This document shows, one piece after another, positions 6,169 through 15,258 of a stretch of DNA of 20,885 bases; position 1 is the first letter of the stretch, and every line of letters starts with the position of its first letter. A program made the translations under genes and the position numbers. Below the pieces are notes generated by a model. It did no database searches. It saw nothing but the letters and a program-made list of their open reading frames with translations, and was not told the DNA's origin. Source of the DNA: a virus; IMG/VR virus record IMGVR_UViG_3300045974_000997, positions 1 to 20,885 of that record. One strand, written 5' to 3'.

Positions 6169-6414
6169 TTAGGCCGTGGCCCGGGCCGTACCGCTTGCCA
6201 CGCGCTCGGCGCGGTATTGGGCCTCGGTGATTTGCTCGGACCGGTAGTTGCGCTTAGCTGGGTCTGCTTCCTTCTGGTTCAGCTTTTTAGATTCTTCGGC
6301 GCGAGCGGCGACAAAGCGAACAGAGTCCCAGACGCGGTGCTCCTGCACATGGGTGTTGCCCTTGGCGTCCGTGTAGCGCATGTGCACGTCATGGGTTGTC
6401 ATTCGGTTGTTCAT
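6169..6414 (-). CDS. hypothetical phage protein with duplicated start region, 81 aa
   Basis: The body encodes a charged, mostly helical protein (RFVAARAEESKKLNQKEADP near the middle) with no domain I recognise. The start is unusual. A perfect 64-bp tandem duplication (6348-6411 and 6412-6475) covers the first codons. The reading frame that continues to the stop starts at the inner ATG (6412-6414). The outer ATG (6476-6478), which has the good AAAGGA Shine-Dalgarno and the ATGA overlap with the upstream gene, now leads out of frame to a TGA at 6389-6391. Full-length protein would need internal initiation or re-initiation at 6414. Before the duplication, the outer ATG was probably the native start. 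Confidence 0.6.
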   Translation of the reverse strand: MNNRMTTHDVHMRYTDAKGNTHVQEHRVWDSVRFVAARAEESKKLNQKEADPAKRNYRSEQITEAQYRAERVASGTARATA

Positions 6415-6475
6415 GGGTGTTGCCCTTGGCGTCCGTGTAGCGCATGTGCACGTCATGGGTTGTCATTCGGTTGTT
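6348..6475. repeat. perfect 64-bp tandem duplication
   Basis: Bases 6348-6411 and 6412-6475 are identical, each beginning CATGGGTGTTGCCC. The first bases of a third copy (CATGGG, 6476-6481) follow. The unit holds the ATG and first codons of the 81-aa leftward gene. Its identity over 64 bp means it is recent, or is an assembly error. Confidence 0.97.
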
Positions 6476-6478
6476 CAT
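6389..6478 (-). CDS. 29-codon out-of-frame leader ORF created by the duplication
   Basis: Translation from the best-supported start (ATG at 6476-6478, AAAGGA upstream, ATGA-coupled to the preceding gene) reads the duplicated copy of the downstream gene's first 22 codons. Because 64 is not a multiple of three, it then enters another frame and stops at 6389-6391. It overlaps the start of the 81-aa gene by 26 bp. It may act as an upstream ORF that lowers or couples translation of that gene, or it may simply be a mutation scar. Short and of unknown value. Confidence 0.35.
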   Translation of the reverse strand: MNNRMTTHDVHMRYTDAKGNTHEQPNDNP

Positions 6479-6696
6479 GGGGTTCCTTTGTTAGCTAGGT
6501 TGATGACGTTTCGTGCAGTGGCGAAGCGCCGCCCGTTGGGGGCTCCTTCGACATAGGCGGTCTTGCGCTTGCTAAGCGGCCACCAGTGCACGTTCACTAG
6601 GCCACCTACGACCAGAACGCGTCCGTCTGCGTATTCAATGACTTCGAGCTCTGCGGCCCGCGCCATCTTTTTGAGGGTTTGCACCTCCTTATTCAC
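6475..6696 (-). CDS. hypothetical phage protein, 73 aa
   Basis: This small protein has a helical N-terminus (KKMARAAELEV) followed by a strand-rich core with a HWWPLSKRKTAYVEG motif and a C-terminal helix (RNVINLA). I believe I have seen this pattern among phage early proteins but cannot assign a function. It starts at GTG (6694-6696), overlapping the upstream stop as GTGA, with GAGG 8 nt before it. A perfect AAGGAGGT lies inside codons 3-5, but the next ATG is 17 nt away, too far to use it. Its own stop overlaps the ATG at 6478. Confidence 0.65.
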   Translation of the reverse strand: MNKEVQTLKKMARAAELEVIEYADGRVLVVGGLVNVHWWPLSKRKTAYVEGAPNGRRFATARNVINLANKGTP

Positions 6697-9269: not shown

Positions 9270-9472
9270 GACCGGACCTCCAGAAACTTGCGGACGGCGT
9301 GGAGGGTGCGCAGCTCTACGGGTTTGGACGTGTTCTGCTCGCCGCAGATCGTCAGTTCATGGGCAATGATGATTCCGCTGCCGACGATGAATTGCAGGCC
9401 ACCGCGGACCATGGCGACGGCGGCGCGCTCCAGGTCTTTGGTGTTCATGGTAGTGGTGTTGGGGTTTGTCAT
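9266..9472 (-). CDS. hypothetical phage protein, 68 aa
   Basis: The ATG at 9470-9472 has a perfect AGGAGG 4 nt upstream and overlaps the methyltransferase stop as ATGA, so I reject the longer frame to 9556. The protein has a Thr/Asn-rich start, a hydrophobic Gly-rich middle (AAVAMVRGGLQFIVGSGIIIAHELTIC in its core) and a basic C-terminal helix (LRTLHAVRKFLEV). No domain is recognised. The hydrophobic middle could be buried or membrane-associated. Confidence 0.65.
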   Translation of the reverse strand: MTNPNTTTMNTKDLERAAVAMVRGGLQFIVGSGIIIAHELTICGEQNTSKPVELRTLHAVRKFLEVRS

Positions 9473-11592
9473 GCAGCCTCCTGGATGCGTTGTGATTCTT
9501 GATAGTTGGCCGCGACATAGGCGCGGGCCATGGGTGGGCAAACCGAATTTCCACACATGCGGACTTGTGCGGTCTTAGTCAGCACGCGGCCATCGCCGCC
9601 ACGCTCGATCTGATAGCTCTCAGGGAATCCTTGGGCCCTGTAGAGCTCGCGCGGTGTGAGCATGCGTAGGCCGATGTCAACGATCTGGTATTGCTGGCCC
9701 TTGACCGTGACCAGACCGAACCGGTCTTTTGTGGTGACGGTGTGCAGCGGATCGCCCAGTTGCGGGTCCTGGTCGGTGCCGTAGTACTTCACAAGGAACG
9801 CACGAACCTCGGCATGATGGGTGCCTTGCGCGCTGATGGTGTGCAACGGCTCGTCGACTGGCTGGCCTTCCTTGCTGGTGCCACGCAGCTTGATCAGGTT
9901 GCTGGTGACCAGCGCCTGACCGCCAGAGCTGGTGACGGTGCGCAGCGGTGTCTCGGCATCCCAGGCGTTGGGCCCTCTGCCGGTAGTCTTGCTGTTGGCA
10001 GTGTTGACCAGTACCGAAGTGACCAAAGCGGCGGGCATGCCTGACGCCGTGACCGTGTTCAGTGGGTCGGTGATGTCGCGCACGCCATGGCTCCAGTGCT
10101 TTGCGCCGTTGGCTTCCTCGCCGTGGCCCATGTGCACTAGGTTGGCGGTAATCAGCGCAGCGTCTGCCTTGCTGGTGGCGGTCGCGGTGGGTTCATCCAG
10201 GCCGCGCGGGCGGCTTTGTCCGGCTCGGCCACCGACACCGGCCAGCACTGCTGTGACCATTCCCATCACATTGCCCGTGCTGGCGCGGGCCGGTGTGCCG
10301 CCTGCTGTCACGGTATGGATTGGTTCATCCATCGCACTGCCAGTGCTGCCAGACCGAAACTTGGTCAGGTGTGCTGTCAGCAGGCTGTGGTGGTCCACGC
10401 TGGTTACGGTGCCAAGCGGGTCTTCCATATCACTGCCGACCACGCCGGTGTAATGCTTCACAAGCGAAGCCGCAACCAGCCCAAAGTGCCCGCCCTTGAC
10501 CTCAGCCATCTGCGTGCGCAGCGGTTCGTCAATCGGCATGACGCGCTGGCTCGAAGCATTGGCGTGCTCGTTAAGGAACGCGGTCACCAAGGCGTGCTTC
10601 TGGCCCGCCACTACGGTGCCAAGCGGCTTGTGTAGGTCCAGCGCGCGTGGCGCCTGGCCTTCGCGTTCACCATAGCCAGTCTGCACCAGCGTCGGAACAA
10701 TCAGCGCCTTCTCGCCCCGATTGGCTCCGGTTACGGTATTGAATGGCTTGGTGATGTCCTCGGTGCGGTCGCCGCCTTGGTGGGTCAGCGGCACGATGAA
10801 CGGGTTTGCCGCGTTGACGACGTAGCGCATGATGCCTTTGGCGATACGCCGTTTGGTGGCCTCGGCCAGGGGACGGGTGCGCTCGAAGATACTGGGCGCA
10901 GGGATGTCCCACTGGATGCACTCGGCGGCGGTGCGGAAGGGCTTGAGCTTCTTCTGTTTGACTGGCAGGGTATCGGGCGCTCCGTGGGTAGCCGACGGGA
11001 ACACGATCGGAAGGCCATCGCACCGGGCGACCAGGAACAGGCGCTTGCGGATAGTGGGTGTTCCCATATCACTGGCGCGGTCCTCGCGGAAGTCCACCGT
11101 GTAGCCAAGGTTCTCCAGTGACGACTTCCAACGCTTGAAGGTGCGGCCCTTGCGCTCCTTGCATGGCATGTTGTTCGCGTCCAGCGGGCCCCAGGTCTGG
11201 AATTCCTCAACGTTCTCCAAGAAGATGACGCGCGGCCGTACCAGCTTTGCCCACTTGATGACGACCCAGGCCAAGCCCCGAATTTTCTTGCTGACCGGCT
11301 TGCCGCCCTTGGCCTTGCTGAAGTGCTTGCAATCGGGCGATGCCCAGAGCATGCCCACGGGGCGACCGTCGACAACAGCCAGCGGGTCCACCTCGAACAC
11401 GTCCGACACGAAGTGCAGCGTTTGCGGGTGGTTTGCCTGGTGCAGGGCCACGGCTTCCGGGTCGTGGTTGATGGCGATGTCAACAGAGCGACCGATCGCC
11501 TGCTCAATGCCGGTACTGGCACCACCACCACCGGCAAAAAGGTCGATCACCAGTTCGTGGTGGATGGGGAGTAGGAATTGGGGACTTAGCAT
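9469..11592 (-). CDS. phage DNA cytosine-C5 methyltransferase with internal repeat array
   Basis: This 707-aa protein would transfer a methyl group from AdoMet to C5 of cytosine, probably shielding phage DNA from host restriction. Motif I is DLFAGGGGASTGIE (17-30), motif IV with the catalytic Cys88 is SPDCKHFS (85-92; PDC where the classic form is PPC), motif VI is ENV (126-128), motif VIII is IRKRLFLV (181-188), motif IX is about 643-661 and motif X is CGNSVCPPMARAYVAA (680-695). Between VIII and IX, where the target-recognition domain sits, are about ten repeats of roughly 25-40 residues with the core PLxTVTxxxxxALVxxxL (279-633). Typical enzymes have 330-450 aa. CGGGG lies 7 nt before the ATG. 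It heads the leftward operon after a 42-aa ORF. Confidence 0.93.
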   Translation of the reverse strand: MLSPQFLLPIHHELVIDLFAGGGGASTGIEQAIGRSVDIAINHDPEAVALHQANHPQTLHFVSDVFEVDPLAVVDGRPVGMLWASPDCKHFSKAKGGKPVSKKIRGLAWVVIKWAKLVRPRVIFLENVEEFQTWGPLDANNMPCKERKGRTFKRWKSSLENLGYTVDFREDRASDMGTPTIRKRLFLVARCDGLPIVFPSATHGAPDTLPVKQKKLKPFRTAAECIQWDIPAPSIFERTRPLAEATKRRIAKGIMRYVVNAANPFIVPLTHQGGDRTEDITKPFNTVTGANRGEKALIVPTLVQTGYGEREGQAPRALDLHKPLGTVVAGQKHALVTAFLNEHANASSQRVMPIDEPLRTQMAEVKGGHFGLVAASLVKHYTGVVGSDMEDPLGTVTSVDHHSLLTAHLTKFRSGSTGSAMDEPIHTVTAGGTPARASTGNVMGMVTAVLAGVGGRAGQSRPRGLDEPTATATSKADAALITANLVHMGHGEEANGAKHWSHGVRDITDPLNTVTASGMPAALVTSVLVNTANSKTTGRGPNAWDAETPLRTVTSSGGQALVTSNLIKLRGTSKEGQPVDEPLHTISAQGTHHAEVRAFLVKYYGTDQDPQLGDPLHTVTTKDRFGLVTVKGQQYQIVDIGLRMLTPRELYRAQGFPESYQIERGGDGRVLTKTAQVRMCGNSVCPPMARAYVAANYQESQRIQEAA
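9694..10758 (-). repeat. about ten degenerate protein-level repeats in the methyltransferase
   Basis: Repeats share the core (D/E/K)P(L/I)xTVT...(A/G)LVT..L. They start near residues 281, 321, 354, 389, 421, 465, 507, 547, 579 and 613. The spacing varies from 25 to 45 residues. The DNA itself is not a clean tandem repeat, so the array is old and under protein-level selection. Confidence 0.85.
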
Positions 11593-14364: not shown

Positions 14365-15258
14365 GTGTCTATTCAATGGCTGCGGCTATGGCACGACATG
14401 CCGACAGATCCCAAGTTCAGGACCATCGCGCGCCTGTCTGGTGAACCCATTTCATTGGTCATCGCCATGTACATGCACATGCTGGTCGACGGGTCACGAA
14501 ATGTCACGCGCGGTCACGTGACAGTCACGCCCGAGGATTTGGCGTCCGCTTTGGACGTGACAGAGGTCCAAATTCAGGCAGTTATCCACAGCATGGAAGG
14601 CCGTCTTTTGGACAAAGGCTATCTGTCTGGATGGGAAAAACGCCAGGTCAAACGCGAGGACACCGGAAACGAAGAAACGGGCGCCAAGTCCCCCGCTCAG
14701 AGGAAGGCCGAGCAAAGACAGCGTGAAAAAGAGGCCCGCGAACTCGCTGAAAAACAAAAGCAGTCACAGGCGGTCACGCAAAGTCACGATGCGTCACGCA
14801 GTGTCACGACAGATAAAGATAAAGAGGGAGATAAAGATAAAGAGAGTGGGGGAGAGCGCACTCCGGCTGCTGCTGTGGATAACTCAGACCACCCCCCCCA
14901 GATTTCAGATGAATTCAGGAAAGTCCTGAACGCCCGCCCTGACCTGGACCCCGAAAACGTTTGGGCCAACTTCTGGAGCCACTACCCGCCTGAGAAGCGA
15001 ACCCTTCCACGTTGGGCGAAGTGGGTGCAATCCGAGCACACAGGACAGGCTGCAACGCCAGCGAATGACCCGGATACCAAGGCGAATGTCCAAGCGCTTG
15101 CAGCCACAAAGGGCGTGCAGCCATGGGACGAATTGACCGAGACATGGGCCGTCTACAAGGACCGCGTGCGGGCTGCGCCGACCCTTAAACCACCACCGAA
15201 TCGAAACAAATGGATGGAAACATTGGCCGTGAAAAAAGGAGTTGCAAATGCTGCGTGA
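14365..15258 (+). CDS. O-like phage replication initiator
   Basis: The start is a GTG (14365-14367) preceded by GGGGAG 8 nt upstream; the longer frame back to 14242 overlaps the previous gene. The N-terminal 95 residues (IQWLRLWHDMPTDPKFRTIAR..., LASALDVTEVQIQAVIHSM) form a winged-helix domain of the kind at the start of phage replication/O-like proteins. A charged linker follows (about 96-175) and then a C-terminal domain with VWANFWSHYPPEKRTLPRWAKWVQSE, which should recruit the host helicase machinery. The gene contains two groups of GTCACG iterons and an A/T-rich repeat, as in lambda O, where the origin lies inside the gene. The assignment rests on architecture and context. Confidence 0.75.
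   Translation: MSIQWLRLWHDMPTDPKFRTIARLSGEPISLVIAMYMHMLVDGSRNVTRGHVTVTPEDLASALDVTEVQIQAVIHSMEGRLLDKGYLSGWEKRQVKREDTGNEETGAKSPAQRKAEQRQREKEARELAEKQKQSQAVTQSHDASRSVTTDKDKEGDKDKESGGERTPAAAVDNSDHPPQISDEFRKVLNARPDLDPENVWANFWSHYPPEKRTLPRWAKWVQSEHTGQAATPANDPDTKANVQALAATKGVQPWDELTETWAVYKDRVRAAPTLKPPPNRNKWMETLAVKKGVANAA
14491..14530 (+). repeat. upstream iteron group (4 GTCACG)
   Basis: GTCACG occurs at 14493, 14503, 14513 and 14524, spaced 10, 10 and 11 bp, so all copies face the same side of the helix. The third copy is part of the palindrome GTCACGTGAC. A further inverted copy (CGTGAC) is at 14556-14561. The motif may be a second initiator-binding patch of the origin. Confidence 0.75.
14761..14846 (+). 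other. probable replication origin: five iterons plus A/T-rich direct repeats
   Basis: GTCAC(G/A) occurs five times at exactly 10-bp spacing (14763, 14773, 14783, 14793, 14803). Directly after it come two 18-bp direct repeats, AGATAAAGATAAAGAGGG (14811-14828) and AGATAAAGATAAAGAGAG (14829-14846), a strand-biased A/T-rich stretch suited to unwinding. Iterons beside an A/T-rich element inside the initiator gene is the lambda ori layout. Function is inferred from this structure. Confidence 0.75.

What the first reader, a model, noticed from the sequence alone, without database searches (positions are those of the whole stretch)
14761..14846. Helically phased iterons and A/T-rich repeats inside the initiator gene
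Five GTCAC(G/A) motifs at exactly 10-bp spacing are followed by an 18-bp A/T-rich direct repeat. This is a compact origin, with shorter and more closely packed iterons than those of lambda. The DNA constraint also shapes the protein, producing Ser/Val/Thr and Asp-Lys repeats.
Basis: partly seen in the sequence, partly recalled or inferred. Interest (0 to 1): 0.65.

Follow-up and report, generated by a model that had tools for sequence, protein, structure and literature searches.

The report
Replication origin inside phage initiator gene
A phage gene for a DNA-replication starter protein appears to carry, inside its own coding sequence, two rows of short binding sites spaced one DNA turn apart, and comparing hundreds of relatives shows which two amino acids of the protein most likely read those sites.

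Summary
In detail: five GTCAC motifs at exact 10-bp spacing (14763-14807), followed by an A-rich 18-bp direct repeat, lie inside a phage replication-initiator gene (14365-15258). Comparative evidence strongly supports an in-gene origin. In the window's clade, array-1 codons show almost no synonymous variation (normalised 0.03 versus 0.86 elsewhere, p=5e-7). Iterons fall in all three reading frames. Across 161 non-redundant relatives the iteron switches among seven types (GTC, CGA, GGA, GTA, GAA, GTG or GCA before a constant ACG), and both arrays always share one type (74/74). The type tracks two residues, i and i+3, of a basic helix after the winged-helix domain (K..Q=GTC, K..W=GGA, A..W=CGA, V=GTA/GAA, T=GTG, S..non-W=GCA). 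These predict iteron type in 102/106 cases even from donors under 55% identical in the winged helix. A protein-blind scan for the array mainly finds initiator genes, including other initiator families. Binding, melting and replication are untested. The kind is known (lambda O, phage L, RepA_N plasmids); the phased double array and two-residue reading rule look new.

The parts
14365..15258 (+). Replication initiator gene (297 aa, GTG start assumed); PHROG 3729 / 21423
   Evidence: phage relatives annotated primosomal protein I, DNA replication protein O, replisome organizer
14377..14655 (+). Codes for the winged-helix domain (residues about 5-97)
   Evidence: AlphaFold2 pLDDT mostly above 90; CAP-type winged helix, best Z 8.1 over 71 residues
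14493..14529 (+). Array 1: four GTCACG iterons at 14493, 14503, 14513, 14524, inside the winged-helix coding region (loop between helices 29-45 and 56-63)
   Evidence: synonymous variation near zero across 35 relatives; same place and spacing in the window's clade
14556..14562 (-). Inverted iteron CGTGACA (reverse complement TGTCACG), codon V61 numbered from the first W always GTG (33/33)
14692..14778 (+). Codes for basic helix residues 110-138; R113, K114, Q117, R118 = codons 14701-14706 and 14713-14718
   Evidence: helix 110-138, block pLDDT about 79-97; K114/Q117 positions covary with iteron type; R113 invariant, R118 nearly invariant
14763..14808 (+).
14811..14849 (+). A-rich, purine-rich 18-bp direct repeat (AGATAAAGATAAAGAG), proposed unwinding element
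   Evidence: family-wide AT 0.59-0.63 and purine 0.74-0.76 peak 15-45 bp after the start of the last iteron, AT baseline about 0.40

Best explanation
The repeats are the phage's replication origin, carried inside the gene of its own initiator. The initiator binds the iterons (form xxxACG(C), here GTCACG), one molecule per helical turn, so that bound molecules line up on one DNA face. A basic helix just after the winged-helix domain reads the variable first three bases through two residues one turn apart (K114 and Q117 here), flanked by conserved arginines 113 and 118. The filament on array 2 strains the A-rich repeat just downstream, which opens and receives the helicase through the initiator's C-terminal part. 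Array 1 (plus one inverted site) is a second docking array in the same gene, possibly for looping, pairing or autoregulation. Shown: array anatomy, DNA-level constraint, co-switching of iteron type and helix residues. Inferred: physical binding, unwinding, helicase recruitment, role of array 1.
For: Initiator family, with helicase loader, helicase or replication protein P next door in relatives. Synonymous heterozygosity at array-1 codons 0.034 versus 0.855 at 82 other codons, p 5e-7. Loci with 3 or more linked same-type iterons: 111 of 161, against 1.4 in synonymous-codon shuffles; spacing 10 or 11 bp in 274 of 282 array-2 and 172 of 174 array-1 intervals; motifs in all three frames; arrays 1 and 2 same type 74/74. 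Iteron type versus helix pair: GTC-KQ 60/61, GGA-KW 8/8, CGA-[ASG][WFH] 31/31, GAA-V 10/10, GTA-V or Q 16/16, GTG-T or M 5/5, GCA-S 6/6. Helix pair predicts type 102/106 from donors under 55% identical in the winged helix; nearest winged-helix neighbour predicts 85/137; mutual information 1.60 and 1.39 bits at the two residues, next best column 0.68. Rule fixed on the first loci and applied to 57 new ones: 48 right, 3 wrong, 6 no call. Protein-blind array scan: 91 of 119 viral contigs hold this family, and 6 of 9 further array-bearing proteins tested match families named replication initiation or DnaD-like loader.
Against: No binding, melting or replication was measured. The helix positions were spotted by eye before being tested on new loci. 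Helix codons and array 2 are physically close, so gene conversion could move them together; but arrays 1 and 2 switch together and within-helix controls argue for contact. On the winged-helix tree only a few switches lie on well-supported branches (1-5 per type, essentially all co-switching). Array 1 is not detected in 65 of 139 loci with array 2. A few relatives (for example L014, L166) show no array. Exceptions: L231 (Q,K with GTC), L238 (Q,F with GTA), L334 (M,F with GTG). No helicase loader is recognisable in the window downstream of the gene.
Confidence: 0.85

Rival explanations
1. The arrays are operators: the initiator (or another regulator) binds them to control transcription of its own operon, and replication starts elsewhere.
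For: Autoregulation by initiators is common (general knowledge); no replication data; array 1 lies within the first 170 bp of the gene.
Against: Array 2 lies about 400 bp inside the gene and is followed family-wide by an A-rich, purine-rich stretch, as in oriLambda; arrays occur in several other initiator families; no sigma-70-like promoter was found between 12.3 and 16.8 kb, so the target of such control is not visible. An additional regulatory role is not excluded.
Confidence: 0.1
2. Peptide-level repeat: selection is on a low-complexity Ser/Val/Thr/His and Asp-Lys linker, and the DNA repeats follow from it.
For: The encoded linker is repetitive in most relatives.
Against: Motifs occupy all three frames; synonymous codons frozen at motifs; synonymous shuffles lose the arrays. 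The record of Escherichia phage 204576 (L009) has a frameshift that rewrites the peptide while arrays stay intact (single record, possibly a sequencing error).
Confidence: 0.02
3. Linkage artefact: iterons and helix move together by recombination, so the residue-type match reflects shared descent of a small DNA block rather than recognition.
For: Helix codons end close to array 2; the winged-helix tree is weakly supported.
Against: Information is concentrated at two helix positions, not spread over neighbours (+2: 0.49, +3: 0.05, +5: 0.24 bits); array 1, about 200 bp upstream of the helix codons, switches in step (74/74); K..Q helices also precede GTCACG arrays in proteins outside the family definition (L370, L383, L401).
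Confidence: 0.1

Closest known systems
Phage lambda O protein and oriLambda (and Stx-phage O genes)
   Same: Iterons bound by the initiator lie in the middle of its own gene, next to an AT-rich tract; iteron number varies and lengthens the protein (PMC7466680)
   Different: Lambda has four inexact repeats of about 20 bp in one array (PMC8022706); here 6-7 bp motifs every 10-11 bp, two arrays plus an inverted copy, different initiator family
Salmonella phage L gene 18
   Same: Six imprecise 11-bp repeats TGTCCAACGGA inside the initiator gene, called a likely origin and noted to differ from lambda and P22 (PMC8022706); TGTCCAACG seen at 11-bp steps, followed by an AT-rich stretch
   Different: Different N-terminal sequence; the R-X-x-x-X-R basic helix is not evident by eye in the translation; no second array described
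RepA_N plasmid initiators (pSK41 Rep)
   Same: DnaD-like N-terminal domain binds four Rep boxes lying centrally within the rep gene, and the protein part coded by the origin is a dispensable linker (PMC5703833)
   Different: Plasmids of Gram-positive bacteria; no Pfam RepA_N match here; no basic-helix reading rule seen in the passages read of that review
PHROG 3729 replication initiation proteins (Escherichia phages Evi and Tritos, Aeromonas phage pAEv1818, Pseudomonas phage phi1)
   Same: Same protein family; GTCACG arrays in the same places in the relatives read
   Different: Annotated only by gene name in the records seen; no origin or iterons annotated

Membership tests
PHROG 3729 phage replication initiation proteins | profile match over the N-terminal domain | tested here: met
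   E 7e-56, residues 4-161
In-gene iteron origin (lambda-type arrangement) | direct repeats inside the initiator gene, conserved as DNA | tested here: met
In-gene iteron origin (lambda-type arrangement) | AT-rich tract next to the iterons | tested here: met
   14811-14849; family-wide AT and purine peak
In-gene iteron origin (lambda-type arrangement) | initiator binds the repeats and replication starts there | not testable with these tools
   only indirect: iteron type covaries with helix residues
Lambda O / oriLambda proper | four repeats of about 20 bp in a single array | tested here: not met
   6-7 bp motif at 10-11 bp, two arrays
RepA_N plasmid initiators | Pfam RepA_N domain | tested here: not met
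   no such Pfam match up to E 0.1
RepA_N plasmid initiators | DnaD-like N-terminal fold | tested here: inconclusive
   generic winged helix, best Z 8.1 to CAP; 4pql chain B (titled only 'N-Terminal domain of DNA binding protein') Z 6.0, rmsd 4.0, 80 residues
Phage_rep_org_N (Pfam) | Pfam match | tested here: not met
   no such match up to E 0.1

The most novel reading that the evidence does not exclude
A portable origin-specificity module shared by several phage initiator families: a basic helix in which two residues (i, i+3) between conserved arginines set the first three bases of a 10-bp-phased iteron array coded just downstream in the same gene, so the origin specificity of a phage can be read from the protein sequence and switched by two substitutions plus array turnover.
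Probability: 0.6. Interest if true: 0.78.

Novelty: new variant of a known kind. Interest (0 to 1): 0.66.

Why it matters
It would give a sequence-only way to locate replication origins in many unannotated phages and prophages, and a protein-DNA reading rule that can be tested by exchanging two residues. It shows one DNA stretch under a double load (protein code and phased binding sites) and origin specificity switching repeatedly in evolution, relevant to phage compatibility and to how initiators and origins stay matched.

Tried and rejected
Single-sequence scans of viral and genome collections gave only 3 loci; alignment queries were needed. A class-wide genome search found only the genome already known. 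No Pfam match above cut-off and no NCBIfam match for the initiator; no solved structure by sequence; Foldseek gave no significant match. Fixed helical phase between arrays 1 and 2 was tested and not convincing (resultant 0.41-0.58 for any period from 10 to 11 bp). An exact conserved A/T repeat as a second motif was rejected: GATAAA, GACACA and GARGAR versions replace each other, only composition is kept. Literature searches found phage L and lambda parallels but no description of this family's arrays or a helix rule; only open-licence papers are held. GC skew was uninformative in this incomplete record.

Full report
Observation. The five GTCAC motifs are at 14763, 14773, 14783, 14793 and 14803, exactly 10 bp apart. 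The spaced pair GTCAC-N5-GTCAC occurs six times in the window, always in this gene, against 0.02 expected. Two copies of AGATAAAGATAAAGAG follow, offset 18 bp.

The gene. The ORF 14365-15258 (P0001) matches PHROG 3729, replication initiation protein, E 7e-56. It sits in a lambdoid layout: repressor-like genes to the left, then the initiator, a DUF1064 nuclease, terminase subunits and a P22-like portal. In relatives the next genes include a helicase, helicase loader or replication protein P; none is recognisable in the window. AlphaFold2 gives a confident winged helix (residues 3-93) followed by a long basic helix (110-138), then mostly low-confidence sequence. Solved winged-helix proteins match the first part (best Z 8.1 over 71 residues, CAP), a common fold.

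DNA, not peptide. In the distinct relatives of the window's clade, array 1 is at the same place with spacing 10, 10, 11 (one or two loci lack the first copy), and array 2 has two to five copies, nearly all at 10-12 bp. Over 35 relatives under 92% identical, synonymous variation is nearly zero exactly at codons 39, 40, 43, 44, 46, 47, 50, 51 (array 1) and 61 (inverted site), and high elsewhere, including codon 45 between motifs. Normalised values are 0.034 against 0.855, Mann-Whitney p 5e-7. Iterons are spread over all three reading frames (array 2: 160/149/118; array 1: 104/82/70), and shuffling synonymous codons abolishes the arrays: 111 of 161 loci have three or more linked sites against 1.4 in shuffles. 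In some clades array 1 lies elsewhere in the gene (nt 74-94, 141-183 or 190-210 from the first W codon instead of 116-147). In an E. coli plasmid copy extra repeats lengthen the loop in the winged helix (L340).

Iteron types. Across 161 non-redundant loci the array keeps its spacing (10 or 11 bp in 274 of 282 array-2 intervals) but the motif switches: GTC, CGA, GGA, GTA, GAA, GTG or GCA, always followed by ACG (this is how sites were defined) and usually C. Where both arrays are found they carry the same type in 74 of 74 loci. In L130, whose type is GTC but whose winged helix is 84-89% identical to CGA-type relatives (L287, L116), the array-1 place holds only decayed sequence.

Which residues read the iteron. 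The basic helix has the form R-X1-x-x-X2-[RK]. X1,X2 follow iteron type: K,Q with GTC (60/61); K,W with GGA (8/8); A/S/G with W/F/H for CGA (31/31); V with GAA (10/10); V or Q with GTA (16/16); T or M with GTG (5/5); S with GCA (6/6). The pair predicts type in 102 of 106 loci using only donors under 55% identical in the winged helix, all four errors being GTA/GAA confusions; the nearest winged-helix neighbour is right in 85 of 137. Mutual information is 1.60 and 1.39 bits at X1 and X2, with the next helix column at 0.68 and the best winged-helix column at 0.38. On a winged-helix tree without array columns type changes 42 times; on supported branches every independent pair co-switches or is neutral, but these are only 1-5 per type. 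The rule was seen by eye in the first 90 loci and then applied to 57 later ones: 48 right, 3 wrong, 6 not called. The failures are mostly the GCA type with S, hardly met before.

Protein-blind check. Of nine other array-bearing proteins tested, six match families named replication initiation or DnaD-like helicase loader and three have no match; three again show R-K-x-x-Q-R or R-K-x-x-x-Q-like basic stretches just before the array (L370, L383, L401). About half of the 28 non-family contigs have the array in short or unrelated frames and may be chance or other repeats.

Unwinding element. After the last iteron of array 2, AT content rises to 0.59-0.63 and purines to about 0.75 for some 30-45 bp, from a baseline AT near 0.40. 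The exact hexamer differs between clades, so composition, not sequence, is kept.

Mechanism. Most likely one initiator molecule sits on each iteron, one helical turn apart and so on one DNA face, with the basic helix in the major groove over the variable trinucleotide; the filament on array 2 borders the A-rich stretch, which would open, and the C-terminal part would hand over the helicase. Array 1 may help by looping or pairing, or may act as an operator. Only anatomy, constraint and covariation are shown; binding and later steps are inferred.

Known relatives. Iterons inside an initiator gene are known for lambda, P22 and phage L (PMC8022706; PMC7466680) and for RepA_N plasmids (PMC5703833). 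Phage L has 11-bp repeats TGTCCAACGGA, close in style. What seems new is the family-wide double array at one-turn spacing, the repeated switching of iteron type, and the two-residue rule that links protein and origin.

Noticed in passing
window 6348-6481: Perfect 64-bp tandem duplication (2.1 copies, not a multiple of 3) at the start of minus-strand ORF 6169-6456.
   Followed up: partly
window 9469-11592 (-): C-5 cytosine DNA methylase (PF00145) of 707 aa whose middle part repeats units like 'DEPL-TVT' many times (seen by eye).
   Followed up: no
L345, L350, L365, L370, L371, L383, L401, L411, L427: Other initiator-like proteins carrying a basic stretch followed by a phased GTCACG array.
   Followed up: partly
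L009 (Escherichia phage 204576): Record has a frameshift just before array 2 that rewrites the linker peptide while the arrays stay intact; could be a sequencing error.
   Followed up: no
L340 (E. coli plasmid pMY504-2): Extra GTCAC-type repeats in array 1 lengthen the winged-helix loop to VTTCHGVSLRGH.
   Followed up: partly
L339 (Microcystis phage MACPNOA1) and L231: GTCAC repeats with a Q,R or Q,K helix, hinting at a second residue pair for the GTC type.
   Followed up: no
codon 7 of the winged-helix alignment (window 14395-14397): Asp codon almost always GAC (32/33), the only low-synonymous-variation codon outside the arrays and inverted site.
   Followed up: no
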